From positions 1 through 64,000 of the forward strand of contig JAVXUO010000413.1 in NCBI GenBank assembly GCA_033065855.1: a stretch of 64,000 bases of DNA, written 5' to 3'. Shown here one piece after another: positions 3,381 to 21,193 of the stretch; within the stretch, counting starts at the first letter, position 1; each line of letters begins with the position of its first letter. The stretch is from Escallonia rubra. Its lineage: Eukaryota; Streptophyta; Magnoliopsida; Escalloniales; Escalloniaceae. The notes under the pieces are model-generated. The model saw nothing but the letters and a program-made list of their open reading frames with translations, searched no databases and was not told where the DNA came from. The translations under genes and the position numbers were made by a program.

Positions 3381-3411
3381 CTTTTATATTATCATTAGTC
3401 TATAAATATGT

Positions 3412-4318: not shown

Positions 4319-4413
4319 CTGGACTAGGAATATATTCTCCCATATTCAAAGGATTTTCAGTGTTTTTGAGTAAAACACCAACTGTATCAGGACTTGAGGA
4401 GTCTTTACCAGTA
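4316..4413 (-). pseudogene. Transactivator C-terminal repeat fragment
   Basis: About 98 bp equal 1262-1361 (minus orientation) and encode part of the Ser/Pro-rich tail repeats. It is fused directly to an RT fragment at 4414, so everything between these two genes is deleted. Confidence 0.75.
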
Positions 4414-5110
4414 GCTTGTTGCTATATCTATTTGGTTTGCAGTATAAGACTGCTCCCCAACCGTCTTTGCATCCATCTGTCTGAACTATTAAATAATCTG
4501 TATCTAATGGTAGATGTAGATCTGGTAATTGTTTAACTTTCTCTTTTATAGTTTTGACTAATCTAATGTCTTCAGTATTGAAGTGTCTTTGCCCATTTTT
4601 TCTAGTTTTGTTGTATAAAGGACCTATTAATTTACTCAGGTCTTTAAAATACATTCTTGCTTGATTTACTAATCCTAAAAAAAGCCTGAATCTGTTTTAA
4701 GCCTTCTAACTTGTCAGGAAAATCTAAAATTTTCTTAGCTATATGTTCTTGTAATTTTATCTTGCCATTTCCTATTTCCATTCCTAAGAATTTTATATTT
4801 GTCTTAAATAACTCTACTTTCTTTTTACTAAGGATTAAACCATGTTTGTCAAAAAGTTTAAAGACAAAGTCTAAATGGGACAAATGTTCAGTCTCATTTT
4901 TGCTACATACTAAAATGTCGTCTATGTATACTAAGATAAAATTATTATAAGGTCTAAAAATATCATCCATCTTGCGTTGGAAGATACTTGGTGCTGTCTT
5001 AAGACCAAAGGGCATAACTAACCATTCATATAAGCCTTCTGGTGTAGTAAATGCTGTCCATTTAATGTCTTCGGGCCACATCTTAATCTGATAAAATCCT
5101 GATTTGCAAT
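4414..5110 (-). pseudogene. Viral reverse transcriptase core fragment
   Basis: On the minus strand this repeats the RT core of 2612-3310, including the MPFGLKTAPSIFQ box and YIDDILV. One extra A in an A run near 4681 shifts the frame after the YIDD region. It differs from the other RT fragment by a few substitutions, such as Lys for Arg after the YIDD box. It ends abruptly at about 5110 against a capsid-gene fragment on the plus strand. Confidence 0.85.
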
Positions 5111-5508
5111 CAGCCAGAATACATTACAGAACCTAATCTAGATTTTACTATTCCAGACAGCTTAAAAGATTTAGATGTAAGCTTTAATCCTTCCCATATA
5201 GCTCCAAGCATAGACAAAATAGACCCTGAAATAGATTATAAAAAGATCTTAGATCAAAAAATTAATATAGCTATAAAAGAAATAACTAGAGTTAGAGAAG
5301 AACATAGAACTTTAGAAAATGACAATAATTTATTAATAGAAGAAATGGATAATATATTAGATTTATTAGACACGGAAAATCATGAAATAGAACTAAACAT
5401 AGATTTAGAAAATTTAGAAACTAGTTCTATAGATACCCAGATTACAACAAACAATATTAAATATAATTTAATGAATGAAGTACCTTATTTCCTTATGGAA
5501 GAAGGAGA
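5111..5508 (+). pseudogene. Capsid-polyprotein N-terminal fragment
   Basis: This matches 12779-13174, which is residues about 55-185 of the capsid-protease-RT polyprotein, including the predicted coiled coil. It starts and stops inside the gene. A 33 bp minus-strand piece of the leader end follows at 5510-5542. Confidence 0.8.
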
Positions 5509-5542
5509 AAGTGTGAACATTTCTTCGAAGCCAAGGAAGGTA

Positions 5543-6045
5543 TTCTGCTATTACTGAAGGCAATGAAGAATATGCTCTAGATATTTCGCAATTTAATACT
5601 TTCTTTTCTGCAATAGAAGAAATCAATACACTAAACACTAGTCTTAGATATTTCTTAGACACTGGCAGACATCCTATAGTTTTAGATCCTCTTACTTCCT
5701 TTTTAAATTACACAAACCAGTTAGATCATTTTACAAATAGACTAAATGATTACTTAGTTAGAATGATAAAACATTATATAGCCCGTAAAGACGTTTCTAA
5801 TAATCATAAGTACTTTACCAGGTATCAAGAACAGACTTTAAGGAGGCAATCTAACAACCAGACATCCACTAGTAGAAATAGAAATAATGGACATCAATAA
5901 TTTCACAATAGGACAAAGCAGCTCTTCTAGGCGTAGAAACCCCATTTACACTAGTATTACAGAAGAACGTTTTGAAGCAAATTAAGTACAATATCGCAAG
6001 TTTTATATAACCCTAAGAATCATAGACGATACAAATCATACTATC
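5543..6045 (+). pseudogene. Fragment of viral ORF1 and start of ORF2
   Basis: This matches 9614-10110 with a few changes, one of which gives ORF2 a stop codon early (near 5983). ORF1 lacks its first codons. It ends in repeated tatcatta filler at about 6040-6100. Confidence 0.8.
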
Positions 6046-6100
6046 ATACAAATCATATTATCATTAGTCATTAGTCTATCATTAGTTTATATTATCATTA
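6040..6100. other. Filler DNA at inversion junction
   Basis: This is an imperfect array of tcatta/agtctatcatta units joining plus-strand ORF2 sequence to minus-strand ORF1 sequence. The same unit occurs at the junctions near 790-840, 3384-3406 and 17420-17480. None of these units belongs to a viral ORF. Confidence 0.65.
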
Positions 6101-6348
6101 GTCTAAAACTATAGGATGTCTGCCAGTGTCTAAGAAATATCTAAGACTAGTGTTTAGTGTATTGATTTCTTCTATTGCAGAAAAGAAAGTATTAAATTGC
6201 GAAATATCTACAGCATATTCTTCATTGCCTTCAGTAATAGCAGAATAAAAAGTAGGATTAGCAGGTCTAGGTAAATTACTCATGGTAATTGATAAGAAGG
6301 GGTTACTTGCTCTTTGACTACTTAACATTCTCCTTTAATAAGTGAACA
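6098..6348 (-). pseudogene. Fragment of viral ORF1 5' end and leader end
   Basis: On the minus strand this holds the first part of ORF1 and the upstream 80 bp that lie between the primer site and ORF1 in the long copy. It shows the uninterrupted form of the site used by the TRIM at 8886, which supports the insertion call there. Confidence 0.8.
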
Positions 6349-7352
6349 TTTCTTATATTTCGCTGTGTTTTTACCTATATTATGCTTCGTCCTTAATGGA
6401 TCACGGTCCAACCGGGGACTCTATCCCTTTTGAATGATTAATCTACGGATACCAGACGTCGATATGCCACCGTTGTTGTTCATATCTACTTCTATGGCTC
6501 CTATTATTGCCTATATTAGTATATTCCCCACCACGCTTCCGAGCGTACTCTGATGGAGTGTCTATATTAATAGGAGTATGTGTAACATTCTGAGCTATTT
6601 GAATAAAGTCTTTAGTAATAGTTAAAGAAAAAGATAGGACAAAAACTTAGAGAGAGAGAGAGAGAGTCTTTGTGGAAGATTTTATTTTTCAAAACTTCAG
6701 GATGCCTGGTAGGTCTAGTCTAGAGTAAATCTCAGGATGCAATTAGAATCAGATTTAGACTATGAAGATTATTTAAATTACAACGAAGACGATAATGATT
6801 ATCCATGGGATGATGAAGCCCTGGCTAATCTAGACAACACTTATAGTGGAATATAGATGACTACAAACAAAATAGAATATTTAAATCTTCAAACAGACAA
6901 TAAAAGTTTAAAAATACTGTCTGGAAGAGATAAGGGGCAGATAATTCAACTTAAGTGGGTCCTATTGTCTTGATAATGCGTTTGGATGCCTGGTAGGTCT
7001 AGTCTAGAGTAAATCTCAGGATGCTAGGATGAACCGACAAAGCTTTCTTTTAAGGTAAAAACTCAGGGCATGCGTTAGTCTGCGGGCTTTCAACGCCATC
7101 ACTCGGCAATAGCCCTGAACGACTCGCTCCCACTTTTGTTTCAAACCCCTAAAGAAGACTCTGGCAATTCGTTTTAGAAGCATAATTGATTTAGATCTAG
7201 GTAAACCTGTGGTAAGCATAATCATTTTTCAAAACAAAATTTTTTTAAAAGAGTCTCTCTTTCCCAAGTAATTGCCATATGATTTAGAATCAAAACATTA
7301 TTAGGATGTTTTTAGTCATATTAGACCAAGACATTCAAGAAGAAGAGTAAAA
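6349..7352. other. Mosaic of short viral pieces
   Basis: In order: leader plus (6349-6467), movement-protein piece minus (about 6468-6515), protease piece minus (about 6515-6630), leader minus (about 6631-6737), ORF3 end and ORF4 start plus (about 6738-6915), promoter-side sequence (6916-6985, equal to 18541-18604), leader minus (about 6986-7324), and the last codons of the movement protein plus (about 7325-7352). No piece is long enough to encode a domain. The 69-codon leader frame is open again at 7016-7225 on the minus strand. Confidence 0.7.
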
Positions 7353-7588
7353 TTGTATTTGAAAAGGAGAGATGCTTGCTGTCGGATTGAGGATGTCAGA
7401 AGTCTGTGACCTTGGTTATGTTGTCCATACAGCTGTCTATTTTTTATGGGGTCTTTCACTAGAGTCTTCTTGAGTCTGATCTTTGTCTGATGAATCACTA
7501 GAGGAAGCAATAATGCTAGGGCTCTGTCTCTGAGCGTCTTGAAAGATAGAGTCTTCAAAATTGCTCGTAGATGTCTCTGTCTTGCTAC
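7353..7588 (-). pseudogene. Transactivator 3' end fragment
   Basis: This matches 17152-17390 in reverse and encodes the last approximately 45 residues of the transactivator plus its 3' flank. It joins a movement-protein fragment of the other strand at about 7589. Confidence 0.75.
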
Positions 7589-8420
7589 TAGAAGACGTAA
7601 TGAAAACAATTTACAAAATAGAGTTCTTAGACTTTTTAGAACACCTCAAGCCCCTATAGCATCTTTAGAACAGATAATAGATATTGACCGACAAATAGAA
7701 CAGTTTAGACAAAATAGATTAGATTTAATATCTCCTCAGATATTATACCAACATCATTCTCAAGTAAGTCAGACTAGATTATTTATGCATTATAGAGAAA
7801 CACAAAATAGATGTGTAGGAGAAGATGTAGCTAGTATAAATTTAATACACCCAGATTCTGAAACTGAATTAATTAGACCAAAATATAATAAGAAACCCCA
7901 TAGAAAATATAGACAACCTAGAAAGACATATTACTTAAGAAAAAGTAAAGCTAGAAAACCTTTCTTAAATCCTAAACATGTTAGGAAATATGACACTAGG
8001 AGAATATACAAAAATAAAATTACTTGTTACTTTTGTGGAGAACCAGACCATTTAAGTTCTAATTGCCCTAGAAGACATAACAATAATAATTTTAAAGCCA
8101 TGATAGTTAATAATACAAATGAAGACCTATTAGAAGTAGATGAAACACTTAGTGATACAGAAAGTATATATAGTATTAAATCGATAGAAGAATACATAGA
8201 AGACAACATTTCTATAAGTAGTGATGAAGAAGAAGACTTTCCAATAGAAACCACAGACCAAATAGATACTTTTATATCTTCCACAAAGACTCTCTCTCTC
8301 TCTCTAAGTTTTTGTCCTATCTTTTTGAATCTTTTCAATATTTCGCTGTGTTTTTACCTATATTATGCTTCGTCCTTAATGGATCACGGTCCAACCGGGG
8401 ACTCTATCCCTTTTGAATGA
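7539..8420 (+). pseudogene. Chimeric open frame: movement-protein N part joined to capsid C part
   Basis: The open frame of 293 codons is a recombination product. About 7589-7874 is movement-protein codons 28-123. From about 7875 it continues in frame with capsid codons from the basic stretch through the CCHC zinc knuckle (written CYFCGEPDH here, where the long copy has CYSC) into the acidic tail. Its ends read through leader and antisense transactivator sequence. The joint sits at a shared TAGA, so microhomology-mediated joining is likely. The open frame is probably chance. No promoter or viral context supports expression. Confidence 0.75.
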
Positions 8421-8495
8421 TTAATCTACGGATACCAGACGTCGGTATGCCTTTGGCAGGTCCGCAAGGATTGACGATTGGTTTAACGAAGTAGA
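8276..8495 (+). other. Viral leader fragment
   Basis: This is the leader segment containing the (CT)n tract and the stretch up to ggtttaacgaagtaga. It equals 530-740 and the reverse of 17520-17735. It is joined to a 27 bp reverse piece of the ORF1/ORF2 overlap at about 8496-8522. Confidence 0.7.
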
Positions 8496-8522
8496 TGTGA
8501 AATTATTGATGTCCATTATTTC

Positions 8523-8822
8523 TATAATATCTAGCTTACAGTATATTTGATTTAAATCCCATCGTTTAATAGGATCTTCTCCTATAAATGGGAGTCTGTC
8601 TATAGCTCTAAGAATATCATGTTTATTTGTAAAGTAGTTTATTAAATTATAACTTATTTTGTCTAAGCTATAAATATCTAGATCTATGTTATCATCTATG
8701 TTATCTTCGTCATCTGTTATCTCTTCTATTTTTAAACATTCATCTCCTATGTCTATATTAGTTAAGCAACAATTTGTCTTACCATTACTACAGTCTTCAC
8801 ATATTTTATTTTTGCCTTTAAG
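8523..8822 (-). pseudogene. Protease-to-RT linker fragment
   Basis: This is the reverse of about 15340-15640 of the polyprotein gene, covering the Cys-containing acidic linker between the protease and RT. It is bounded by breaks on both sides. Confidence 0.75.
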
Positions 8823-8885
8823 CAGGTCTAGGTAAATTACTCATGGTAATTGATAAGAAGGGGTTACTTGCTCTTTGACTACTTA

Positions 8886-9024
8886 TGTAACGACCCGGTC
8901 CACGGCCCCACCACAGGGCATTGCCTCCCTCAAAAGGGCTAGCCAAGTAGGTACTTATGAGTTCATAGGCAGGGTCTTATAAGGCCAATCGCAAACTCTC
9001 CCACAACCGATGTGGGATATTACA
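8886..9024 (-). repeat. TRIM LTR (3' LTR in element orientation)
   Basis: 139 bp, identical to 9247-9385, with TG...CA termini. It contains a TATA-like CTTATAAG in the middle. Confidence 0.93.
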
Positions 9025-9246
9025 ATCTCCCCACCTTATTTCTTAGCGTCCTCGCTAAGGCTCGATCACACATAGCCCAGAATCTTCCTCTCTAGCCAAT
9101 GTGGGATATACCTGGCTCACCCTTCGTTTCCCCCAACCATCCTCTTGATGTGGGATATACCGGGGCTTGCCTTCGTTTCCCCCAACCATTGGCAACCCGA
9201 CTGGACAGCCCAGCCCGAGCTTTCGAGAGTCGGCTCTAATACCATC

Positions 9247-9385
9247 TGTAACGACCCGGTCCACGGCCCCACCACAGGGCATTGCCTCCCTCAAAAGGGC
9301 TAGCCAAGTAGGTACTTATGAGTTCATAGGCAGGGTCTTATAAGGCCAATCGCAAACTCTCCCACAACCGATGTGGGATATTACA
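9247..9385 (-). repeat. TRIM LTR (5' LTR in element orientation)
   Basis: 139 bp, identical to 8886-9024. On the minus strand it is followed, after two bases, by the tRNA-Met-type primer site. Confidence 0.93.
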
Positions 9386-9434
9386 ACTTAACATTCTCCT
9401 TTAATAAGTGAACATTTCTTCAAAGCCAAGGAAG

Positions 9435-9451
9435 GTATGGCTCTGATACCA
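9435..9451 (-). promoter_or_regulatory. Mirror copy of the tRNA-Met primer-binding site
   Basis: This is an exact reverse complement of 9470-9486. It is the end of the minus-oriented viral fragment that meets the long copy head to head. Confidence 0.85.
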
Positions 9452-9469
9452 AGATGGGGGGGGGGGTTT

Positions 9470-9486
9470 TGGTATCAGAGCCATAC
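9470..9486 (+). promoter_or_regulatory. Viral tRNA-Met primer-binding site
   Basis: The sequence tggtatcagagccatac matches the 3' end complement of plant initiator tRNA-Met (TGGTATCAGAGC core). In Caulimoviridae this site primes minus-strand DNA synthesis and is taken as genome position 1. Here it is the first base block of the long viral copy, about 85 bp before ORF1. Confidence 0.92.
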
Positions 9487-9571
9487 CTTCTTTGGCTTTG
9501 AAGAAATGTTCACTTATTAAAGGAGAATGTTAAGTAGTCAAAGAGCAAGTAACCCCTTCTTATAAATTACC

Positions 9572-9967
9572 ATGAGTAATTTACCTAGACCTGCTAATCC
9601 TACTTTTTATTCTGCTATTACTGAAGGCAATGAAGAATATGCTGTAGATATTTCGCAATTTAATACTTTCTTTTCTGCAATAGAAGAAATCAATACACTA
9701 AACACTAGTCTTAGATATTTCTTAGACACTGGCATACATCCTATAGTTTTAGATCCTCTTACTTCCTTTTTAAATTACACAAACCAGTTAGATCATTTTA
9801 CAAATAGACTAAATGATTACTTAGTTAGAATGATAAAACATTATATAGCCCGTAAAGACGTTTCTAATAATCATAAGTACTTTACCAGGTATCAAGAACA
9901 GACTTTAAGGAGGCAATCTAACAACCAGACATCCACTAGTAGAAATAGAAATAATGGACATCAATAA
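9572..9967 (+). CDS. Viral ORF1, small protein of a three-member family
   Basis: 131 residues, first ORF after the primer site. I do not recognise the family. Residues 33-51 (FFSAIEEINTLNTSLRYFL) align with ORF2 residues 39-57 and ORF3 residues 41-59. The N-terminal NPTFYSAITEGNEE also resembles NPIYTSITEERFE in ORF2, and a later block with HYIARKD-NN-YF recurs in both. It ends in a Gln/Asn/Ser/Arg-rich tail. It overlaps ORF2 by 14 bases, which fits transactivator-dependent reinitiation. No membrane segment or signal peptide is visible. The ATG chosen is the first one after the leader; an upstream in-frame start is not seen in this copy. Confidence 0.8.
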   Translation: MSNLPRPANPTFYSAITEGNEEYAVDISQFNTFFSAIEEINTLNTSLRYFLDTGIHPIVLDPLTSFLNYTNQLDHFTNRLNDYLVRMIKHYIARKDVSNNHKYFTRYQEQTLRRQSNNQTSTSRNRNNGHQ

Positions 9968-10481
9968 TTTCACAATAGGACAAAGCAGCTCTTCTAGGCG
10001 TAGAAACCCCATTTACACTAGTATTACAGAAGAACGTTTTGAAGCAAATTACGTAGAATATCGCAAGTTTTATATAACCCTAAGAATCATAGACGATACA
10101 AATCATACTATCAAATACCGTATTTTAGACCATACACTTTCTTTAAAATACAATCCTTTAAGAACTTATATGAGTAGGTTTATGAATCTATCCGCCTTAA
10201 CATTAGATTTAAACCCTTATTTAAGACATTTAGTAGACTTCTATATATATTATCAAGATAATAAAAACAATAATTATTATAGAAATGAATATGATAGACT
10301 TAGAATCACTAGACCTAATTTTGATAGATTTAGAGCAATCATAGAAAGGCATGAACCAACAGCTTTAGAAAACATAACAAATCACATAAATTTTCTACAA
10401 ATAACTAGTGATTCACAAAGCACAGATTCAGATAGTTCTAGTAATAATGAAGAACCAAACAATTTAAACCTTCCAGATTAA
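9954..10481 (+). CDS. Viral ORF2, paralogue of ORF1 and ORF3
   Basis: 175 residues of unknown function. The core FYITLRIIDDTNHTIKYRI (39-57), a following YNPL-type turn, and FYIYYQDNKNNNYY (about 94-107) line up with the same places in ORF3 and more loosely in ORF1. The C-terminal 25 residues are Ser/Asp/Asn-rich and acidic. Its stop overlaps the ORF3 start as TAATG. A broken copy lies at 5886-6045. Confidence 0.8.
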   Translation: MDINNFTIGQSSSSRRRNPIYTSITEERFEANYVEYRKFYITLRIIDDTNHTIKYRILDHTLSLKYNPLRTYMSRFMNLSALTLDLNPYLRHLVDFYIYYQDNKNNNYYRNEYDRLRITRPNFDRFRAIIERHEPTALENITNHINFLQITSDSQSTDSDSSSNNEEPNNLNLPD

Positions 10482-11041
10482 TGACAGATAGAAATCTAAA
10501 CACAGAACCTTATCAAGAACCGTTTAGCTTTGAAGACATGATAGCTAATTTTAACATAGATCAACAAACTACTTCAGACATATTAGAAACCTTTCATAGA
10601 TTCTACTTAGCTTTAGAAACAATAGATCATACAAATGAAAGATTAAAACATTATATAGACACAGATTCCATAAACTTAGTATACAATCCCTTATCTTTTT
10701 ACATTAGATATTTTCTAAATTTAGACTTATTATTAGAAGATTTTGACATTTTCTTTCAGCACCTTATAGGTTTTTACATACAATTAAAAGACCACCAGAA
10801 TAATGCTTTATATTATACTGAGTTTCACAGAAGATTAGAACATATAGACCCAAGCACTCCCGCAGAAAACTTAAGAATTCCTGCAGATATAACAGCTCAA
10901 ATACAAAACAATTTAGACAGATTACAATTAGAATCAGATTTAGACTATGGAGATTATTTAAATTACAACGAAGACGATAATGATTATCCATGGGATGATG
11001 AAGCCCTGGCTAATCTAGACAACACTTATAGTGGAATATAG
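10481..11041 (+). CDS. Viral ORF3, paralogue of ORF1 and ORF2
   Basis: 186 residues of unknown function. The shared core is FYLALETIDHTNERLKHYI (41-59), then YNPLSFYIRYFLNLD and FYIQLKDHQNNALYY. The tail (about 145-186) is strongly acidic with several Tyr/Asp pairs. The gene starts on the ORF2 stop and is followed without a gap by ORF4 (TAG then ATG). Acidic tails of this kind could contact RNA-binding or capsid proteins, but that is a guess. Confidence 0.8.
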   Translation: MTDRNLNTEPYQEPFSFEDMIANFNIDQQTTSDILETFHRFYLALETIDHTNERLKHYIDTDSINLVYNPLSFYIRYFLNLDLLLEDFDIFFQHLIGFYIQLKDHQNNALYYTEFHRRLEHIDPSTPAENLRIPADITAQIQNNLDRLQLESDLDYGDYLNYNEDDNDYPWDDEALANLDNTYSGI

Positions 11042-11323
11042 ATGACTACAAACAAAATAGAATATTTAAATCTTCAAACAGACAATAAAAGTTTAAAAAT
11101 AATTAGAGAAAACTTAGATTATATGAAAGAAGTTTATATGCAATCTTCAGACAAGTCTAAACAGAGTGAGGCTAAAATAGAAACAATATTAGACAAACTT
11201 AGCAAAATAACTATTGAGTTAGAAAAAATTATAATTACTATAAATAGACTTGAAAAACAAATTAGTAAAATAGAAGATAATATAAGACAATATTTTAATA
11301 TACAAGGACTTGATTATAAATGA
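11042..11323 (+). CDS. Viral ORF4, small coiled-coil protein
   Basis: 93 residues. Residues about 43-85 show heptad-like Ile/Leu spacing with Lys and Glu between (KIETILDKLSKI, IITINRLEKQISKIEDNI), which predicts a parallel coiled coil. Caulimovirus virion-associated proteins and badnavirus P2 proteins are small coiled-coil or nucleic-acid-binding proteins at a similar genome position, so a virion-associated role is plausible. No catalytic motif is seen. The stop overlaps the ORF5 start by four bases (ATGA). Confidence 0.7.
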   Translation: MTTNKIEYLNLQTDNKSLKIIRENLDYMKEVYMQSSDKSKQSEAKIETILDKLSKITIELEKIIITINRLEKQISKIEDNIRQYFNIQGLDYK

Positions 11324-11667
11324 CTAGTTCCAGAAATTATGAAATTTATTCAGACTATAAACAAGCTATGTTAGATGAAAATGATTACTTATTTCCAGCA
11401 GAAGGTATATCTAAAAACGCACTAGGAACTCCAAACGATCTTTCTAATAGAAAACAAAATAATGTTATTATAATGTTACTAATAAAATGTTTAGAAAGAC
11501 TAGACACCCTAGCATTAAAGGTAGAGTTGTATCTTGATAGACCTAAAATAGAGAATAGCCTAGATATAGATGTTTTATGCAAAAAATTAGAGAAAATAAC
11601 CATAGATAAACCTAAAAGGAAAACAAAAACACAAGACTTAAAATTTTTGACATATGACAAGCAATAA
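11320..11667 (+). CDS. Viral ORF5, small protein with a badnavirus P1-like layout
   Basis: 115 residues. The N-terminal part (NYEIYSDYKQAMLDENDYL) followed by a helical segment NVIIMLLIKCLERLDTLALK and a Lys-rich end resembles in layout the badnavirus ORF1 product (DUF1319), which also lies upstream of the main polyprotein. The resemblance is by eye and weak. It overlaps ORF4 by 4 and the movement protein by 14 bases. Confidence 0.65.
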   Translation: MTSSRNYEIYSDYKQAMLDENDYLFPAEGISKNALGTPNDLSNRKQNNVIIMLLIKCLERLDTLALKVELYLDRPKIENSLDIDVLCKKLEKITIDKPKRKTKTQDLKFLTYDKQ

Positions 11668-12613
11668 TAGTCAAATTTTAGGAAGAGGCAATATAGAAGA
11701 TAGAAGTAGAACAGAAGTTCTAGCCACAGAAACTAGAAGACGTAATGAAAACAATTTACAAAATAGAGTTCTTAGACTTTTTAGAACACCTCAAGCCCCT
11801 ATAGCATCTTTAGAACAGATAATAGATATTGACCGACAAATAGAACAGTTTAGACAAAATAGATTAGATTTAATATCTCCTCAGATATTATACCAACATC
11901 ATTCTCAAGTAAGTCAGACTAGATTATTTATGCATTATAGAGAAACACAAAATAGATGTGTAGGAGAAGATGTAGCTAGTATAAATTTAATACACCCAGA
12001 TTCTGAAACTGAATTAATTAGAGGAAATTTCAATTTAACTCATATAGGCTTAATAGTTATAGGCGTAAAAGGATTAACTAGAAGAGATACAGGAGCTAAA
12101 GTATTCTTAGCTATAATAGACGATAGATTTTCTAGTGAACAGGCAATAATAGGAGCCATAGAAGTAGATATGAACAACAACGGTGGCATATTTTATTGTG
12201 CACCAGATTTCTGTATAAACACTAGAGATTTTGCAAAAAATATTAAAGTTAAAATAATGACTAAAGGTTATGAAGACTTTCAACAAGGCAAAAATCTTTT
12301 AATATGCACTACTTTTATAGGAAAGTTAACACAAAACAGTCAAGTAGGATATAAATTAACCATAGATGACACTGCAAAGTTTATAATTAATAGAGGAATT
12401 AGACTATTACCACCTTATAGAATAGATGCTTTAGAAAATTCAGGACAAGAATGGCAAGTAGATAAACTATTAGAAACAAGCTCAAACAATAGTATTATAC
12501 CCACAGACAACTTTTGGTATAAAAATGCTTCAGGAAGAATGTCAGTTAGATTTACTAATTATATAGAATCAAATACACACCTAGGAGACCAAGACATTCA
12601 AGAAGAAGAGTAA
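11654..12613 (+). CDS. Viral movement protein (30K superfamily)
   Basis: 319 residues. The 30K core lies at about 125-245, with IGLIVIGVKGLTRRDTGAK and the FLAIIDDRF strand carrying the conserved Asp, then GAIEVDMNNNGGIFYCAPDF and ICTTFIGKL. In this family the protein forms tubules through plasmodesmata for cell-to-cell spread. Unlike badnaviruses and tungroviruses, where this domain is fused to the capsid polyprotein, it is a separate ORF here. The N-terminal 120 residues are basic and helical. It overlaps ORF5 by 14 bases and ends 3 bases before the polyprotein. Partial copies lie at 7589-7874 and 19003-19298. Confidence 0.9.
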   Translation: MTSNNSQILGRGNIEDRSRTEVLATETRRRNENNLQNRVLRLFRTPQAPIASLEQIIDIDRQIEQFRQNRLDLISPQILYQHHSQVSQTRLFMHYRETQNRCVGEDVASINLIHPDSETELIRGNFNLTHIGLIVIGVKGLTRRDTGAKVFLAIIDDRFSSEQAIIGAIEVDMNNNGGIFYCAPDFCINTRDFAKNIKVKIMTKGYEDFQQGKNLLICTTFIGKLTQNSQVGYKLTIDDTAKFIINRGIRLLPPYRIDALENSGQEWQVDKLLETSSNNSIIPTDNFWYKNASGRMSVRFTNYIESNTHLGDQDIQEEE

Positions 12614-12616
12614 AAT

Positions 12617-15600
12617 ATGTATAGTTATAAAGACTTTGATATCTTAAAAAACTTAGACATAAAAATCCTAAATCAATCCATAGGAACAACTTTTGTAGGA
12701 AAAGGCTTAAATGTAGAACAATTACAAAAATTCTTAAGTATTACAGAAAGGGAAGACAACTTAGATATATTTAATCAGCCAGAATACATTATAGAACCTA
12801 ATCTAGATTTTACTATTCCAGACAGCTTAAAAGATTTAGATGTAAGCTTTAATCCTTCCCATATAGCTCCAAGCATAGACAAAATAGACCCTGAAATAGA
12901 TTATAAAAAGATCTTAGATCAAAAAATTAATATAGCTATAAAAGAAATAACTAGAGTTAGAGAAGAACATAGAACTTTAGAAAATGACAATAATTTATTA
13001 ATAGAAGAAATGGATAATATATTAGATTTATTAGACACGGAAAATCATGAAATAGAACTAAACATAGATTTAGAAAATTTAGAAACTAGTTCTATAGATA
13101 CCCAGATTACAACAAACAATATTAAATATAATTTAATGAATGAAGTACCTTATTTCCTTATGGAAGAAGGAGAAACTTCAGGCACTACTAATAATAGAAA
13201 TGATGATGGAGGTAGATTTTATACCTCACAACCACATTCAAGGCCACGTTATCCATATGGCAACTTACCTAGACATAGTGCAAACATAGATAATAATAGA
13301 GCTGAAAGACCTAATTATAGACCAAAAGGTAAAAGACATCCTTTAGAACAAAACTTTAAAATCCAAAAGGCAGCAGAACCTTTTATTTTAAATATAACAG
13401 CAGTAGATCCTCAACAAAGAAACAATTATATACAAGTATGGAAAGATGCAGTTGTAGCAAATTTTATAACCAAACAATCAGACAATTTAGAAACAGGAGA
13501 AGAAATGATAAGATATATGATACAATTTTTAGGTCCTATAGCTAAAGCTAATTTTGAAGAATGGCAAAAGACATATCCAGATGATTTAAAGCAAATGGCG
13601 GATTTAGGACCAAACCCTTATAATTTCGTTAATACCATACAATTAATTTTAACAGGTAGAAATCCTAATACAGGAGATACTATAATACAAACAGAAGCAG
13701 CTAGAAAATTAGAACAAGTACATTTATATAGTTGGCATAACATAAAACCTTTTATGCAAGAATATTATTACTTTGCTTCACAAAGTGGAAATATTTATAA
13801 ACCAGCTGTTATAGACAAATTTCTAAACAAATTACCAGGCGCTTTAGGAAGAGAAATATATGAGACAATTAAAAAACTTTATCCAAGCCCTACTTGGACA
13901 CCTTCTTTAGGCAATGTTTTTGAACATGTTATAGAAATATTAGTTTCTAAATGCACTAATATACAAATAGCTAGACAATTAAAGAATGAAACTAGTTTTT
14001 GTAAAGAAATATATACACCTCAACATTATGGTCAAGAAGAATCTAGACCAAAATATAATAAGAAACCCCATAGAAAATATAGACAACCTAGAAAGACATA
14101 TTACTTAAGAAAAAGTAAAGCTAGAAAACATTTCTTAAATCCTAAACATGTTAGGAAATATGACACTAGGAGAATATACAAAAATAAAATTACTTGTTAC
14201 TCTTGTGGAGAACCAGACCATTTAAGTTCTAATTGCCCTAGAAGACATAACAATAATAATTTTAAAGCCATGATAGTTAATAATACAAATGAAGACCTAT
14301 TAGAAGTAGATGAAACACTTAGTGATACAGAAAGTATATATAGTATTAAATCGATAGAAGAATACATAGAAGACAACATTTCTATAAGTAGTGATGAAGA
14401 AGAAGACTTTCCAATAGAAACCACAGACCAAATAGATACTTTTATAAACTCTCTAAAGAATACAGAAATATACAATTTCATGTTTAAACCCTTAGCTGAC
14501 AAACTAGCATTAGAAGAAGACTGTATACATCAATGGCAAATAGGTAAAGGTATAGACACAACACCTTGCTATATATGTAATTGGTTTCCTGCAATTAGAG
14601 TTAGATGCAAATGTGATATATGTCATATAGAAGCATGCATAAAATGCATAAAACAGAAATATAACATAGAAATTACTAAAGCAATAGAACATAAGACTTA
14701 TACAGACACTTATTATGATAAGAATGTTAATAGAAGATTAGAATTCTTAGAACAAAAGGTGATTCAAATAGAAGAAACCTTAAAGCAAAGACATGAAGAT
14801 GAACTAATCATAGGTAATAATAAGCAGTTAATTCAACAAATACAAAACGACTTTAAAATAGAAAAATTCTGTACTAAGGCAAGATTTAATAATCTTATAA
14901 CTACTAGAGTACAAATCAGACACTATAATAAGTTAATAGAAACCAATGCAATAATAGACACAGGTTGCACTATAACTGTTATAGATCCAGGCTTAGTCGA
15001 TAAATCTCATATCAAGACATTTGAAGAACCCTTAATTGGAATAGGATTTACAGGCAACCCAATTAAATATTCTGAATATATTACAAATGCAGCTATTACT
15101 TTTCTTACACCATGCAATACACAAAGTAAACCCTATTTTCTTAAACAAGCTTTTTGTGCTACTGTTGCACACTCTGAAGGCAAAATTATTTTAGGAATAA
15201 ATTTTTTAATAAATGACAACAATACTTTAACTATTACTAAAGACTTTATTCAAATAGCTCAGAATGTTACACATACTCCTATTAATATAGACACTCCATC
15301 AGAGTACGCTCGGAAGCGTGGTGGGGAATATGCTAATATTAAAGGCAAAAATAAAATATGTGAAGACTGTAGTAATGGTAAGACAAATTGTTGCTTAACT
15401 AATATAGACATAGGAGATGAATGTTTAAAAATAGAAGAGATAACAGAAGACGAAGATAACATAGATGATAACATAGATCTAGATATTTATAGCTTAGACA
15501 AAATAAGTTATAATTTAATAAACTACTTTACAAATAAACATGATATTCTTAGAGCTATAGACAGACTCCCATTTATAGGAGAAGATCCTATTAAACGATG

Positions 15601-15937
15601 GGATTTAAATCAAATATACTGTAAGCTAGATATTATAAATCCAGACTATATTGTTAAAACTGCTAATATAGAAGCAAGTAGTTTAGATACAGAAGACTTT
15701 AAAATGCACATTAAAGATTTAACAGAATTAAAGGTAATAAGACCAAGCAATAGTCCTCATAGATCCGCAGCTTTTATAGTTAGATACAACAAAAATAAAG
15801 ACACCAGATACACTAATAGATGGTTAAAATTTATGACCTCTTTAAGTAACTATAGAATAGATAAAATAGAATGGCAACACATTAAAGGAGTTGATAACTC
15901 CATTGCAGATTTACTTTCTAGAAAAATTCTATCTTAA
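12617..15937 (+). pseudogene. Capsid-protease-RT polyprotein with an in-frame RT deletion
   Basis: The frame is open for 1106 codons. In order: N-terminal region with a coiled coil (95-140), capsid core (about 255-470), Arg/Lys-rich stretch (475-525), CCHC knuckle CYSCGEPDHLSSNC (527-540), acidic tail, a second cysteine cluster CX2CX11CX2CX4CX2C (651-677), aspartic protease with IDTGCT (Asp781), a linker, and the first RT residues SPHRSAAFIV (1046-1055). At about 15775-15785 the frame jumps directly to the RNase H end. RT fingers, the YIDD box and most of RNase H, about 1 kb, are gone, while the reading frame is kept. Flanking sequence suggests a short tatagttaga homology at the joint. This product could not reverse transcribe. 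Capsid and protease parts look intact. Confidence 0.9.
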
Positions 15938-16007
15938 GATAATTTCAGACAAATAGACAGACTTTTATCTTATACAATTTTAAAATCAGACAATCTTTTT
16001 ATTACAG
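15938..16007 (+). promoter_or_regulatory. Spacer before the transactivator gene
   Basis: 70 bp between the polyprotein stop and the transactivator ATG are present in the copy at 3721-3790 as well. It holds direct repeats of cagacaa/cagaca. About 37 bp of it is deleted in the inverted copy near 2246. No TATA box is clear. In CaMV a separate promoter serves this gene, but I cannot show one here. Confidence 0.4.
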
Positions 16008-17303
16008 ATGGCATCTTCTTCGGCATCTTCATCCGCTCAGATAAGACAAAATCAGGCAAACCAGGCAAACCCTGTTTTTCCAACCCAGTTTATCAGTTAT
16101 GTTGATAATCTTGGCAGAAACAGGATTAATTTTAACGGCAATAATTTAGAAGTTTTACATGTTGGCTCTAGATTTCAGGTTAAAGATCACAAAATTGGTC
16201 CTCTCCCTGTTGATCAGAGAACACTCCTAGATAATTTATGGCAATCTTTTGTTAAAAAAGACAATGGGTGGTTTGTCAATACTGTTAACGCTTTGGCAAA
16301 CTATTTTCATAAAATTAGAGACTCTAAAAAATATAATTTTTACTGTGTTTTTAAAGGCACTATTCCAGGCATTTACAAAAGTTACCCAGAGGCTATGGTA
16401 GGCGGAGTTGGGAATGTAAAAGATCCTTGGTATAAAGGAACTATAACATTTCAAGAAGCCACCACTCTTATGCAGACACATTATGGCCCCAATTACTATA
16501 TTAGCCCAGATTGTCAAGACGGATCTCTTTCAGACAATTTAGCAGACTGTGAAAATTGTTGTACTTTAATTAGACATCATAATATTTTAAAATCTAGATT
16601 AGACCATTTACTTTTAGAAAAATCGCATTTTGACCTACAAGTAGCTCAGCTTAAAGCACAAATACAAGTTTTAGAATTAGAAACAAATGACTGGAAACAG
16701 AGATATACCACTCTCCTTTCCACCAGGCAACAGACACCAAAACCCAGTGTTTCGGGTAATAAAGAAACACCTAGTCTGGATTCACAGGCATCCAGTAAAG
16801 ACAAGTCAGGTCCTGTTACAGTTGGTAATTTACTCAAAATTACTGAAAAACCCGTGTGTTCGGGAGAAAAAACACCTAGTCCAGTATTACAGGCTACTGG
16901 TAAAGACTTCTCAAGTCCTGATACAGTTGGTGTTTTACTCAAAAACACTGAAAATCCTTTGAATATGGGAGAATATATTCCTAGTCCAGTTCTACAGGTG
17001 ACTGGTAAAGACTCATCAAATCCTGAGACCCCTGTCCATTTGGGAAAAATGGAATTAAGGAAATTAAAAAGTAAGAAGGCAAAAAGACAAGCGATGGCAA
17101 TTCAAAATCAAGTAGCTAAAGTTTTGGCAGAACTCGTTAACAAGACATTGACAAGCAAGACAGAGACATCTACGAGCAATTTTGAAGACTCTATCTTTCA
17201 AGACGCTCAGAGACAGAGCCCTAGCATTATTGCTTCCTCTAGTGATTCATCAGACAAAGATCAGACTCAAGAAGACTCTAGTGAAAGACCCCATAAAAAA
17301 TAG
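16008..17303 (+). CDS. Viroplasmin / translational transactivator
   Basis: 431 residues. The viroplasmin-like fold lies at about 110-158 (FYCVFKGTIPGIYKSYPEA and a Trp/Tyr/Gly pattern after it), a domain related to the N-terminal hybrid-binding domain of RNase H1. A coiled coil with a CENCC start follows at about 180-235. Then three imperfect repeats of about 36 residues (245-350) each carry a S-P-V-L-Q/TGKD/TVG-LLK-TE-P pattern. The tail is Ser-rich with a basic patch near 360-375. Proteins of this type form inclusion bodies and allow reinitiation on polycistronic viral RNA, which suits the tightly packed ORFs upstream. This is the only complete copy; four partial copies lie in the cluster. 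Confidence 0.9.
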   Translation: MASSSASSSAQIRQNQANQANPVFPTQFISYVDNLGRNRINFNGNNLEVLHVGSRFQVKDHKIGPLPVDQRTLLDNLWQSFVKKDNGWFVNTVNALANYFHKIRDSKKYNFYCVFKGTIPGIYKSYPEAMVGGVGNVKDPWYKGTITFQEATTLMQTHYGPNYYISPDCQDGSLSDNLADCENCCTLIRHHNILKSRLDHLLLEKSHFDLQVAQLKAQIQVLELETNDWKQRYTTLLSTRQQTPKPSVSGNKETPSLDSQASSKDKSGPVTVGNLLKITEKPVCSGEKTPSPVLQATGKDFSSPDTVGVLLKNTENPLNMGEYIPSPVLQVTGKDSSNPETPVHLGKMELRKLKSKKAKRQAMAIQNQVAKVLAELVNKTLTSKTETSTSNFEDSIFQDAQRQSPSIIASSSDSSDKDQTQEDSSERPHKK

Positions 17304-17520
17304 ACAGCTGTATGGACAACATAACCAAGGTCACAGACTTCTGACATCCTCAATCCGACAGCAAGCATCTCTCCTTTTCAAATACAAGATAAAGGCAAAG
17401 AAAATCCCAAGATTTAGTAATGATAATATAGACTAAGAAAATCTAAGATTTAGTAATGATAATTTAGTAATGATAACTATCGTCTTTTATATTAAATCCC
17501 AAGATTTTCTGATTTAGTCT
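17304..17520. other. Transactivator 3' flank and filler junction
   Basis: After the stop comes about 100 bp of viral 3' flank, then about 110 bp of repeated agatttagtaatgata units with inverted partners, containing a short patch aactatcgtctttta that matches RT sequence at 3366-3382. From about 17517 the leader runs in the reverse direction. The same structure is present, inverted, at 768-950. Confidence 0.65.
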
Positions 17521-18257
17521 ACTTCGTTAAACCAATCGTCAATCCTTGCGGACCTGCCAAAGGCATACCGACGTCTGGTATCCATAGATTAATCATTCAA
17601 AAGGGATAGAGTCCCCGGTTGGACCGTGATCCATTAAGGACGAAGCATAATATAGGTAAAAACACAGCGAAATATTGAAAAGATTCAAAAAGATAGGACA
17701 AAAACTTAGAGAGAGAGAGAGAGTCTTTGTGGAAGATTTTATTTTTCAAAACTTCAGGATGCCTGGTAGGTCTAGTCTAGAGTAAATCTCAAGATGCTAG
17801 GTTGAACCGACAAAGCTTTCTTTTAAGGTAAAAACTCAGGGCATGCGTTAGTCTGCGGGCTTTCAACGCCATCACTCGGCAATAGCCCTGAACGACTCGC
17901 TCCCACTTTTGTTTCAAACCCCTAAAGAAGACTCTGGCAATTCGTTTTAGAAGCATAATTGATTTAGATCTAGGTAAACCTGTGGTAAGCATAATCATTT
18001 TTCAAAACAAAAATTTTTTAAAAGAGGCTCTCTTTCCCAAGTAAATGCCATATGATTTAGAATCAAAACATTATTAGGATGTTTTTAGTCATATTAGACT
18101 TAGAAATGTTCCTTTTCAATTCATAGAATGTGTTTCGTCATTGAGCGTTTTCACCCCAGAATGTTAAACAAGTTTAAAGAGTAACACTTACTTGAACTAA
18201 GGATTGCTGCGTACTTGAGTTGAAGAACTGATTTGATTTACAGGGAAAAGTGAGATT
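17517..18257 (-). other. Viral leader, minus orientation
   Basis: On the minus strand this follows the candidate promoter at 18258-18667 and has many short ATG frames. It is colinear with 1-740. The orientation is opposite to the ORFs next to it, so it was inverted during or before integration. Confidence 0.7.
17789..17998 (-). CDS. Leader reading frame, 69 codons, basic
   Basis: A strongly basic short frame (many Arg and Lys) is open in three leader copies: here, at 260-469 and at 7016-7225, with one substitution (Asn to Ile) near the end. It may simply be a leader uORF that stays open because the copies are young. No homologue is recognised. Confidence 0.25.
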   Translation of the reverse strand: MIMLTTGLPRSKSIMLLKRIARVFFRGLKQKWERVVQGYCRVMALKARRLTHALSFYLKRKLCRFNLAS

Positions 18258-18667
18258 GCATGAAGCAGAGAAGTTTCAAAGAGAAAATTGTATTGCTCTT
18301 CAAAAGATTACTTCGCATTCGCACTTGTATTCACACACTTACAAAATGGACTCTGCCTTAGTTTATATAGGCAGGGAAAAGCTAACTACAGGACCCTAAA
18401 GGACTAATGCTTTACATCTGTACAAAATGACAAGAAAACTTTCTAGACTACATTATGACGAACTTTAATTAAAGGTAGCCTAAGAATCTAAGAGATGCTG
18501 AGCTGCTAAGTTTACATTGTCTTCTTCTGCCTATTTTAACTGTCTGGAAGAGATAAGGGGCAGATAATTCAACTTAAGTGGGTCCTATTGTCTTGATAAT
18601 GCGTTTTAAAAGTAGATGCCTTGCGTTGTAGATCAATAATGCAGTCTTCACCCTGAAATTAATGGTG
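18258..18667 (-). promoter_or_regulatory. Candidate pararetroviral promoter region
   Basis: On the minus strand a TATATAA box (18369-18363) sits in a GC-richer context, with a TGACG motif (plus strand 18456-18460) about 90 bp upstream, similar to the as-1 element of known pararetrovirus promoters. Transcription would start near 18335 and run into the leader at 18257. A 64 bp part (18541-18604) recurs at 6916-6982, which supports viral rather than host origin. The exact start is not shown by the sequence. Confidence 0.5.
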
Positions 18668-19003
18668 GAGTCATGTCTTGTCTTTGAAACAAAAGTGGGA
18701 GCGAGTCGTTCAGGGCTATTGCCGAGTGATGGCGTTGAAAGCCCGCAGACTAACGCATGCCCTGAGTTTTTACCTTAAAAGAAAGCTTTGTCGGTTCAAC
18801 CTAGCATCCTGAGATTTACTCTAGACTAGACCTACCAGGCATCCTGAAGTTTTGAAAAATAAAATCTTCCACAAAGACTCTCTCTCTCTCTCTAAGTTTT
18901 TGTCCTATCTTTTTGAATCTTTTCAATATTTCGCTGTGTTTTTACCTATATTATGCTTCGTCCTTAATGGATCACGGTCCAACCGGGGACTCTATCCCTT
19001 TTT
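18668..19003 (+). other. Viral leader fragment, plus orientation
   Basis: This equals 340-655. It meets the promoter fragment head to head at about 18668 and is cut at 19003, where a movement-protein fragment begins. Confidence 0.7.
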
Positions 19004-19500
19004 AGGAAAGTTAACACAAAACAGTCAAGTAGGATATAAATTAACCATAGATGACACTGCAAAGTTTATAATTAATAGAGGAATTAGACTATTACCACCT
19101 TATAGAATAGATGCTTTAGAAAATTCAGGACAAGAATGGCAAGTAGATAAACTATTAGAAACAAGCTCAAACAATAGTATTATACCCACAGACAACTTTT
19201 GGTATAAAAATGCTTCAGGAAGAATGTCAGTTAGATTTACTAATTATATAGAATCAAATACACACCTAGGAGACCAAGACATTCAAGAAGAAGAGTAAAA
19301 TATGTATAGTTATAAAGACTTTGATATCTTAAAAAACTTAGATATAAAAATCCTTAATCAATCCATAGGAACAACTTTTGTAGGAAAAGGATTAAATGTA
19401 GAACAACTACAAAAATTCTCAAGTATTACAAAAAGGGAAGACAACTTAGATATATTTAATCAGCCAGAATACATTACAGAACCTAATCTAGATTTTACTA
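19003..19500 (+). pseudogene. Fragment: movement-protein C part and polyprotein N part
   Basis: 19003-19298 encodes the last approximately 98 residues of the movement protein, and 19302-19500 the first approximately 67 of the polyprotein, with the same 3 bp spacing as in the long copy and a few substitutions. It breaks at about 19500 into minus-strand capsid sequence. Confidence 0.85.
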
Positions 19501-20577
19501 GTGTCTGTATAAGTCTTATGTTCTATTGCTTTAGTAATTTCTATGTTATATTTCTGTTTTATGCATTTTATGCATGCTTCTATATGACATATATCACATT
19601 TGCATCTAACTCTAATTGCAGGAAACCAATTACATATATAGCAAGGTGTTGTGTCTATACCTTTACCTATTTGCCATTGATGTATACAGTCTTCTTCTAA
19701 TGCTAGTTTGTCAGCTAAGGGTTTAAACATGAAATTGTATATTTCTGTATTCTTTAGAGAGTTTATAAAAGTATCTATTTGGTCTGTGGTTTCTATTGGA
19801 AAGTCTTCTTCTTCATCACTACTTATAGAAATGTTGTCTTCTATGTATTCTTCTATCGATTTAATACTATATATACTTTCTGTATCACTAAGTGTTTCAT
19901 CTACTTCTAATAGGTCTTCATTTGTATTATTAACTATCATGGCTTTAAAATTATTATTGTTATGTCTTCTAGGGCAATTAGAACTTAAATGGTCTGGTTC
20001 TCCACAAGAGGAACAAGTAATTTTATTTTTGTATATTCTCCTAGTGTCATATTTCCTAACATGTTTAGGATTTAAGAAAGGTTTTCTAGCTTTACTTTTT
20101 CTTAAGTAATATGTCTTTCTAGGTTGTCTATATTTTCTATGGGGTTTCTTATTATATTTTGGTCTAGATTCTTCTTGACCATAATGTTGAGGTGTATATA
20201 TTTCTTTACAAAAACTAGTTTCATTCTTTAATTGTCTAGCTATTTGTATATTAGTGCATTTAGAAACTAATATTTCTATAACATGTTCAAAAACATTGCC
20301 TAAAGAAGGTGTCCAAGTAGGGCTTGGATAAAGTTTTTTAATTGTCTCATATATTTCTCTTCCTAAAGCGCCTGGTAATTTGTTTAGAAATTTGTCTATA
20401 ACAGCTGGTTTATAAATATTTCCACTTTGTGAAGCAAAGTAATAATATTCTTGCATAAAAGGTTTTATGTTATGCCAACTATATAAATGTACTTGTTCTA
20501 ATTTTCTAGCTGCTTCTGTTTGTATTATAGTATCTCCTGTATTAGGATTTCTACCTGTTAAAATTAATTGTATGGTC
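19488..20577 (-). pseudogene. Capsid fragment with both cysteine motifs
   Basis: This is the reverse of about 13635-14713. On the minus strand it encodes the second half of the capsid core, the basic stretch, the CCHC knuckle (CSSCGEPDH here) and the CX2CX11CX2CX4CX2C cluster. It is uninterrupted but lacks both ends. Confidence 0.85.
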
Positions 20578-20654
20578 TATAATTAGGTCTTTCAGCTCTA
20601 TTATTATCTATGTTTGCACTCCTAGATAATTTATGGCAATCTTTTGTTAAAAAA

Positions 20655-20658
<4 letters not shown>
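20578..20658. other. Two short viral scraps at the cluster edge
   Basis: 20578-20616 is the reverse of about 13285-13325 (polyprotein), and 20617-20658 equals 4008-4049 (transactivator, plus). They end directly at the TA repeat. Confidence 0.7.
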
Positions 20659-20701
<43 letters not shown>

Positions 20702-20722
20702 GTATATATATGTATACATATG

Positions 20723-20755
<33 letters not shown>

Positions 20756-20870
20756 ATACATACATACATATGTATACATACATACATATGTATACATATA
20801 TACATATGTATACATATGTATGTATATACATATGTATACATACATATATATATACATATGTATACATATG

Positions 20871-20915
<45 letters not shown>

Positions 20916-21013
20916 GTACATACATATATACATAGATACATATGTATATATATGTATACATATGTATATATATACATATGTATACATATGTATCTATGTA
21001 TATATGTATGTAC

Positions 21014-21046
<33 letters not shown>

Positions 21047-21109
21047 CATATATATACATGTATATATATACATATGTATACATATGTATCTATGTATATA
21101 TGTATGTAC

Positions 21110-21164
<55 letters not shown>

Positions 21165-21193
21165 CACACTCATATATATATATATATATATAT
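20659..21193. repeat. (TA)n / (TATACA)n microsatellite
   Basis: 535 bp of TA units interspersed with tatacatatgta, self-complementary throughout, ending with a (CA)n stretch at 21157-21170. Long Tyr-Ile frames here are repeat artefacts. It separates the virus cluster from DNA element I. Confidence 0.95.

What the first reader, a model, noticed from the sequence alone, without database searches (positions are those of the whole stretch)
9470..17303. Unusual pararetrovirus genome plan: five small ORFs, separate movement protein, fused capsid-polymerase, transactivator
Seen: eight consecutive ORFs with 4-14 base overlaps or near-zero gaps after a tRNA-Met primer site. Known: badnaviruses and tungroviruses fuse movement protein, capsid and polymerase; caulimoviruses and soymoviruses keep capsid and polymerase apart and have a transactivator. 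Here capsid and polymerase are fused, movement protein is separate, and a transactivator is present. Inference: this may be an undescribed genus, or an endogenous relative of Rosadnavirus or Vaccinivirus, which should be compared first.
Basis: partly seen in the sequence, partly recalled or inferred. Interest (0 to 1): 0.88.

Follow-up and report, generated by a model that had tools for sequence, protein, structure and literature searches.

The report
Fossil plant virus with tripled gene
A shattered copy of a plant DNA virus, stitched into a plant chromosome, keeps an eight-gene order in which the first three small genes are copies of one another, an arrangement we did not find described for this virus family.

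Summary
In detail: eight plus-strand ORFs follow an exact tRNA-Met primer site (9470) and run to 17303. Five small ORFs precede a movement protein (ORF6), a capsid-protease-RT/RNase H polyprotein (ORF7) and a transactivator-like ORF8.

Three findings change the reading. (1) ORFs 1-3 are tandem paralogues (z 9.5, 13.6, 16.2; 0/300 shuffles each); a word-based search of 5.8 billion proteins found no homologue at E <= 1. (2) The 'separate' movement protein is one in-frame stop, present in three of three copies; the closest relatives found have both parts in one protein. (3) This is no intact virus: about 29 viral pieces on both strands fill most of 1-20658, up to an (AT)n tract. Copies differ by 0.68%, as under neutral decay. 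ORF7 lacks the RT core, which lies elsewhere in pieces.

RT identity is 56% to the nearest protein found and 48% to cauliflower mosaic virus. No other named reference could be compared, so the genus stays open; Rosadnavirus (eight or nine ORFs) should be compared first. A transactivator domain beside a badnavirus-like plan is already known in Dioscorea nummularia-associated virus. Rated a new variant of a known kind.

The parts
1..20658 (.). cluster of rearranged endogenous caulimovirid fragments (runs off the left end of the window)
   Evidence: 62 mismatches in 9161 aligned columns (rows above 95% identity)
9470..9481 (+). tRNA-Met primer binding site; head-to-head with an inverted copy at 9440-9451
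   Evidence: 9386-9451 matches 9535-9470
9572..9967 (+). ORF1, 131 aa, member of the triplicated family
9954..10481 (+). ORF2, 175 aa, member of the triplicated family
10481..11041 (+). ORF3, 186 aa, member of the triplicated family, acidic (net charge -26)
11042..11323 (+). ORF4, 93 aa, coiled-coil-like; candidate virion-associated protein by position and heptads only
11320..11667 (+). ORF5, 115 aa, no Pfam match
11654..12613 (+). ORF6, 319 aa, viral movement protein
   Evidence: PF01107 5.6e-8; 40% identity to P0006
12611..12613 (+). single in-frame stop separating ORF6 from ORF7 (same frame); same stop at 19296-19298 and in the fragment 7323-7358
12617..15937 (+). ORF7: capsid, CCHC, second Cys cluster, aspartic protease, RT N-terminal part and RNase H C-terminal part; RT core deleted in this copy
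2284..3399 (-). fragment with RT core and RNase H (open frames 2527-3399 and 2284-2526)
   Evidence: PF00078 4.3e-36, PF17917 7.4e-6
4346..5123 (-). second fragment with RT core pieces
   Evidence: PF00078 1.5e-32, PF17919 2.3e-5
16008..17303 (+). ORF8, 431 aa, transactivator-like; contains a 105-nt tandem repeat 16739-17026
   Evidence: PF01693 17.3 bits, two further copies 17.8 and 19.0 bits, cut-off 21
17304..18606 (+). non-coding region of the viral unit; 18258-18538 seen once only
18998..19500 (+). second copy of the ORF6/ORF7 border
   Evidence: 98.4% to 12312-12815
8886..9385 (-). TRIM-like terminal-repeat element inserted into a viral fragment
   Evidence: 139-bp terminal repeats with 0 mismatches, TG..CA ends, primer site with one mismatch, duplicated ACTTA
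20658..21193 (.). (AT)n tract at the right end of the viral cluster

Best explanation
This is the fossil of a caulimovirid of uncertain genus. Its gene order was: primer site, three tandem copies of one accessory gene (ORF1-3), a coiled-coil protein (ORF4), ORF5, movement protein, a capsid-protease-RT-RNase H polyprotein, and a transactivator-like protein. Shown: gene order, domains, paralogy, stop/start spacing, loss of the RT core from ORF7. Inferred working: one pregenomic RNA translated by termination-reinitiation along ORFs 1-7, helped by ORF8, with ORF7 cut by its own protease. ORF1-3 most likely arose by two tandem duplications and are most likely virion-associated or accessory proteins, by position only. 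Many viral DNA pieces, some ending at the tRNA-Met site, were joined end to end beside an (AT)n tract in one or a few events, then decayed neutrally. A TRIM-like element inserted into one piece, most likely after integration.
For: ORF chain far above chance. Family domains; RT fragment 134/280 identical to the CaMV RT 8R0S (entry identified in PMC11363490). ORF1-3 paralogy z 9.5/13.6/16.2, 0/300 shuffles each, 13 invariant columns. Second copies at four of seven borders. ORF1-5 hold 24 out-of-frame ATGs, three of them the next ORF's start, which speaks for reinitiation rather than leaky scanning. Near-blunt joins: 14 of 20 tested joins measurable, 0-4 nt shared, mean 1.36 against 0.82 by chance. 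Forty coding differences between copies: 10 synonymous, 28 non-synonymous, 2 stop, against 26/70/4% in a neutral simulation that assumes 67% transitions. (AT)n neighbour fits the (TA)n bias in PMC4241990.
Against: The transactivator domain is below its curated cut-off in all three copies scanned. No stable leader stem was found in 17304-18682 (8 windows, z -1.55 to +2.20), so the shunt leader described for the family is not shown. ORF1-3 have no detected homologue, so their function is a guess from position. All copies in the window appear to come from one viral clone, so a defect of that clone cannot be told from a species feature. Four of 14 measurable joins share 3 or more bases (7.5% expected), so some homology at joins is possible.
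Confidence: 0.8

Rival explanations
1. It is an endogenous member of Rosadnavirus or its direct sister; the eight-ORF plan is then that genus's plan. (Odds raised from 0.20 to 0.25 on re-checking: PMC5902531 is not consistent about a TAV in Rosadnavirus.)
For: ICTV gives eight ORFs for rosadnaviruses (PMC7660458), another paper nine (PMC9719215). PMC5902531 expects reinitiation there and once lists Rosadnavirus among genera with TAV-encoding ORFs.
Against: The same passage says no TAV homologue is recognisable by protein BLAST in Rosadnavirus, whereas a weak TAV domain is present here. PMC9794742 found no rosadnavirus among 11,527 endogenous RTs of 202 species. No rose yellow vein virus sequence could be compared.
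Confidence: 0.25
2. The MP/capsid split is a nonsense mutation of the one viral clone that integrated; the species had a fused MP-capsid-polymerase ORF like its relatives.
For: ORF6 and ORF7 are in the same frame with one stop between them. P0006 and the Solanum verrucosum proteins P0007/P0008 carry movement-protein and capsid regions in one chain.
Against: An ATG follows 3 nt after the stop, as tight as the other borders between ORF1 and ORF7. The stop is in three of three copies, the ATG in the two that reach it. The movement protein ends just after its last conserved block. The copies are one clone, so their agreement is weak evidence.
Confidence: 0.2
3. The eight-ORF order is an artefact of the rearrangement of the locus.
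For: The cluster is heavily rearranged and ORF7 itself carries a deletion.
Against: Four of seven borders occur in second fragments; an ORF chain like this did not arise in shuffles.
Confidence: 0.03

Closest known systems
P0006 (unnamed ENA protein, 1011 aa) and Solanum verrucosum proteins P0007, P0008
   Same: capsid, CCHC and second Cys cluster, 36-41% identity
   Different: movement-protein region and capsid in one chain; upstream ORFs unknown
P0009 (unnamed ENA protein, 632 aa)
   Same: protease-RT-RNase H; RT 162/289 (56%) identical
   Different: host, genus and neighbouring genes unknown
Dioscorea nummularia-associated virus, PMC6135502 (placing it in Dioscovirus is recalled)
   Same: transactivator-domain ORF downstream of a polyprotein with MP, capsid and RT features; small ORFs upstream
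   Different: four ORFs, MP fused; two upstream ORFs instead of five
Rose yellow vein virus (Rosadnavirus)
   Same: many ORFs (eight in PMC7660458, nine in PMC9719215)
   Different: TAV not recognisable by BLAST according to one statement of PMC5902531; sequence and ORF layout could not be compared here
Water chestnut soymovirus-1 (PMC6482551)
   Same: nine predicted ORFs, several unmatched small ones near the primer site, TAV ORF
   Different: capsid and polymerase in separate ORFs; no paralogy among the small ORFs mentioned in the passages seen

Membership tests
Caulimoviridae | tRNA-Met primer site before the coding block | tested here: met
   exact at 9470
Caulimoviridae | movement protein, caulimovirid capsid domain, aspartic protease, RT and RNase H | tested here: met
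   RT core only in separate fragments
Caulimoviridae | encapsidated circular dsDNA genome | not testable with these tools
   only an integrated copy is at hand
Caulimoviridae | structured leader (ribosome shunt) | tested here: inconclusive
   no window of 17304-18682 folds better than shuffles beyond z -1.55; the leader may be incomplete here
Rosadnavirus | eight or nine ORFs | tested here: met
   eight ORFs
Rosadnavirus | presence or absence of a TAV (PMC5902531 states both) | tested here: inconclusive
   TAV domain 17.3-19.0 bits, cut-off 21
Rosadnavirus | RT clusters with rose yellow vein virus | not testable with these tools
   no reference sequence reachable; protein searches and viral-contig scans gave none
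Badnavirus / Tungrovirus | movement protein, capsid and polymerase in one ORF | tested here: not met
   stop at 12611-12613, in three of three copies
Badnavirus / Tungrovirus | second Cys cluster CX2CX11CX2CX4CX2C after the CCHC finger (link to this group is recalled, no call) | tested here: met
   ORF7 residue 652; a paper search for the motif found none
Badnavirus / Tungrovirus | ORFs before the polyprotein free of internal ATGs (leaky scanning; PMC5902531, which notes exceptions) | tested here: not met
   24 out-of-frame ATGs in ORF1-5, three of them the next ORF's start
Dioscovirus | TAV-domain ORF together with a fused MP-CP-RT ORF (PMC6135502) | tested here: not met
   TAV weak but present, MP separate
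Vaccinivirus | one ORF (PMC7660458) or, for its member virus, a badnavirus-like MP-CP-RT ORF (PMC5902531) | tested here: not met
   eight ORFs, MP separate
Yendovirus / Orendovirus / Wendovirus (endogenous groups) | RT clusters with the group | not testable with these tools

The most novel reading that the evidence does not exclude
A genus-level caulimovirid lineage in which one accessory gene was duplicated twice in tandem, and in which gaining a transactivator let a badnavirus-like fused polyprotein split by a single stop/restart into a separate movement protein. The unit may also exceed the 9.8 kb upper size given for the family: 9.1 kb from the primer site to 18606, without an RT core of at least 0.9 kb.
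Probability: 0.4. Interest if true: 0.62.

Novelty: new variant of a known kind. Interest (0 to 1): 0.47.

Why it matters
Tandem gene duplication kept as three diverged, separately encoded genes would be unusual in a compact reverse-transcribing virus. I found no report of it for this family, but only one paper search was aimed at duplication; some searches were broader, and the library holds open-licence papers only. The single stop between movement protein and capsid shows how small the step is between the fused and split plans used to tell genera apart. PMC5902531 proposes that acquiring a transactivator allowed such splits, and this element looks like that step. A new genus-level group as such is not rare: PMC13308828 reports 35.

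Tried and rejected
Rfam scan of the window: nothing at gathering score. Viral-contig scans with the RT fragment, MP, P0006, the RT alignment, the ORF7 alignment and P0009 and one scan of bacterial and archaeal contigs: no confirmed relative. Protein search with the ORF1-3 alignment: 747 candidates, none at E <= 1; that search sees only proteins sharing short exact words and of similar length. PDB profile search with ORF1-3: best E 0.035, taken as chance. PDB hits of the movement protein to filovirus glycoproteins (E >= 0.12) taken as chance. ORF4 matches in Pfam (best 0.006) and PHROGs (best 7.9e-5) are taken as coiled-coil noise. Leader structure search negative. I first took overlaps of BLAST ends at fragment joins as microhomology (22 joins, -2 to 11 nt); an exact recount of 20 joins gave 0-4 nt at 14 of them, the other 6 not measurable because of nearby differences. 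Structure prediction of the RT fragment with three sequences came back at mean pLDDT 47 and was not used. Considered and dropped: LTR retrotransposon (no integrase matched; movement protein present) and assembly artefact (copies differ in a neutral pattern; a transposon with target duplication sits inside). The host could not be named; seven ORFs scanned beyond 27 kb show plant transposon genes and a plant mobile domain.
Full report
Observation. An exact tRNA-Met primer site lies at 9470-9481. Eight plus-strand ORFs follow, with steps of -14, -1, 0, -4, -14, +3 and +70 nt. Six ORFs of 90 aa or more in 9470-12613 compare with a mean of 0.004 and a maximum of 1 in 1000 dinucleotide shuffles. Over 9470-17303 there are nine such ORFs (the eight plus one inside ORF8) against a mean of 0.04 in 300 shuffles; the longest ORF in any shuffle had 152 aa. 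GC at the third codon position is the lowest of the three in all eight ORFs, narrowly in ORF3.

Domains. ORF6 matches the viral movement protein family (5.6e-8). ORF7 matches the caulimovirid capsid domain (3.3e-24), a CCHC finger (3.8e-5) and peptidase A3B (5.3e-9). ORF8 matches PF01693 (Cauli_VI) at 17.3 bits against a cut-off of 21. Two further copies of ORF8 score 17.8 and 19.0 bits. I therefore call ORF8 transactivator-like, supported also by its place after the polymerase. ORF7 carries a second cysteine cluster, CX2CX11CX2CX4CX2C, at residue 652, also present in P0006-P0008. I recall this spacing as typical of badnaviruses; no call confirmed it (a paper search found none).

The polymerase. 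ORF7 holds the N-terminal part of the RT (residues 1002-1062 match the CaMV RT chain) and runs in frame into the C-terminal part of RNase H, but has no YIDD. The RT core lies elsewhere in the cluster on the minus strand: 2527-3399 (RVT_1 4.3e-36), 2284-2526 (RNase H) and 4644-5123 (RVT_1 1.5e-32). Thus 'fused capsid and polymerase' is right for the gene, and this copy is deleted. I describe the pieces only and did not join them.

Paralogues. ORF1, ORF2 and ORF3 are related to one another. Smith-Waterman scores of 107 (1/2), 118 (1/3) and 173 (2/3) give z 9.5, 13.6 and 16.2, with 0 of 300 shuffles reaching each. Of the other 25 pairs tested (ORF7 by its first 334 residues only) none exceeds z 3.7 (ORF4/ORF8, both with heptad stretches). 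The three align with 13 invariant columns. Their alignment found nothing at E <= 1 in a word-based search of 5.8 billion proteins (747 candidates), nothing convincing in Pfam, nothing in PHROGs at E <= 0.1, and nothing better than E 0.035 in the PDB. The simplest history is two tandem duplications followed by divergence. By position (between the primer site and a coiled-coil ORF4) they stand where badnavirus ORF I stands, whose product is virion-associated in ComYMV (PMC4926197, passages). That is a lead, not a test.

The separate movement protein. ORF6 and ORF7 are in the same frame, separated by one TAA; the next ATG is 3 nt on. The second copy of this border has the same stop and ATG; a third fragment (7323-7358) has the stop and ends before the ATG. 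In P0006 movement protein and capsid are one chain, and in P0007/P0008 the C-terminal block of the movement protein runs into the capsid. So the feature that looked genus-defining is one stop codon. I favour a real gene border, because spacing and restart match the other borders, but one clone cannot prove it.

Translation. ORF1-5 contain 24 out-of-frame ATGs, three of which are the start of the next ORF. The leaky scanning of badnaviruses goes with few internal ATGs, and CaMV uses short stop-start spacings with TAV-supported reinitiation (PMC5902531, passages). Reinitiation is therefore the likelier mode here. A structured leader was looked for and not found: eight windows over 17304-18682 gave z from -1.55 to +2.20.

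The locus. Compared with the stretch 9470-18682, the rest of 1-20658 breaks into fragments of about 30 bp to 3.4 kb on both strands. I count about 29 pieces, the long stretch included and tandem-repeat rows left out. Unexplained within it are 6047-6101 and the short spacer 9452-9469. Rows above 95% identity hold 62 mismatches in 9161 aligned columns (0.68%); rows below that were left out of this figure. Second copies bridge the ORF1/2, 3/4, 6/7 and 7/8 borders, so the gene order is not made by the rearrangement there. Of 20 joins tested, 14 could be measured exactly: 0-4 shared bases, mean 1.36 against 0.82 expected, with 4 of 14 sharing 3 or more against 7.5% expected. That is end joining with little homology. 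At 9386-9481 two pieces that both end at the primer site face each other; priming sites are where virion DNA has its discontinuities (PMC7660458). The right end touches an (AT)n tract at 20658-21193, in keeping with the (TA)n bias reported for florendoviruses and rice tungro-like elements (PMC4241990, passages).

Age and decay. Forty coding differences between copies fall 10/17/13 on codon positions 1/2/3 and are 10 synonymous, 28 non-synonymous and 2 stops. A neutral simulation assuming 67% transitions expects 26/70/4%. The copies were thus nearly identical when they integrated and decayed without visible selection. With plant mutation rates from memory this suggests a few hundred thousand years. 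A small terminal-repeat element (8886-9385) sits in a viral piece: 139-bp terminal repeats without a mismatch, TG..CA ends, a primer site with one mismatch, and a duplicated ACTTA on both sides. Insertion after integration is the likely order, not shown.

Placement. RT identity is 162/289 (56%) to the unnamed P0009 and 134/280 (47.9%) to the CaMV RT, PDB 8R0S (entry identified in PMC11363490). A further hit, Tanacetum P0010, overlaps the RT fragment by 51 residues only (47%). PMC13308828 separates genus-level groups at 62%; PMC10377300 cites 55%, which P0009 just passes. Identities of the longer pol region between type members are given as 27-48% in PMC6135502 and are not directly comparable. 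These numbers allow a new genus but do not show one, because no named reference other than CaMV could be compared: six scans of viral contigs and one of genome contigs confirmed no relative. Rosadnavirus is the first comparison to make. PMC5902531 says that no TAV is recognisable there by BLAST and, in the same passage, lists it among genera with TAV-encoding ORFs; on re-checking this I raised that rival from 0.20 to 0.25. Dioscorea nummularia-associated virus (PMC6135502) already combines a TAV domain with a badnavirus-like plan, and water chestnut soymovirus-1 has nine predicted ORFs with several unmatched small ones (PMC6482551). So many small ORFs plus TAV is not by itself new; the triplication is the part for which I found no precedent (listings).

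Size. From the primer site to 18606 the unit spans 9.1 kb without the RT core, of which 920 nt (2447-3366) have no match in it. If 18258-18538, seen once, is viral, the intact genome would be about 10 kb, above the 7.1-9.8 kb given for the family (PMC7660458).

Papers: whole text seen for PMC7660458, PMC11556137 and PMC6256638. Outline, first of four parts of the Results, and passages for PMC13308828. Passages only for PMC5902531, PMC5766536, PMC10377300, PMC9794742, PMC6135502, PMC4241990, PMC4926197, PMC9693529, PMC6482551, PMC9719215 and PMC11363490. The rose yellow vein virus genome paper was seen only as a reference entry.

Verdict. A real, rearranged endogenous caulimovirid with open genes; plan confirmed; genus open; new variant of a known kind by virtue of the triplicated gene and the single-stop gene split.

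Noticed in passing
8886-9385: TRIM-like element: two 139-bp terminal repeats without mismatch, primer site just inside, 5-bp target duplication ACTTA in a viral fragment.
   Followed up: yes
16739-17026: 105-nt tandem repeat (2.7 units) inside ORF8, also in the copy at 1230-1517.
   Followed up: no
17398-17476: short AT-rich repeats of 36 and 14 nt in the non-coding region, possible promoter or enhancer elements.
   Followed up: no
9452-9469: spacer with a run of G between the two facing primer sites; origin unknown.
   Followed up: no
6047-6101: 55 nt in the viral cluster that match nothing in 9470-18682.
   Followed up: no
50848-54418: Copia-type retrotransposon remnants: integrase (PF00665) and RVT_2.
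   Followed up: partly
54615-59870: LINE-type remnants: DUF4283, RVT_1, zf-RVT, RVT_3.
   Followed up: partly
27393-28016: Plant mobile domain protein fragment (PF10536, 9.3e-40).
   Followed up: no
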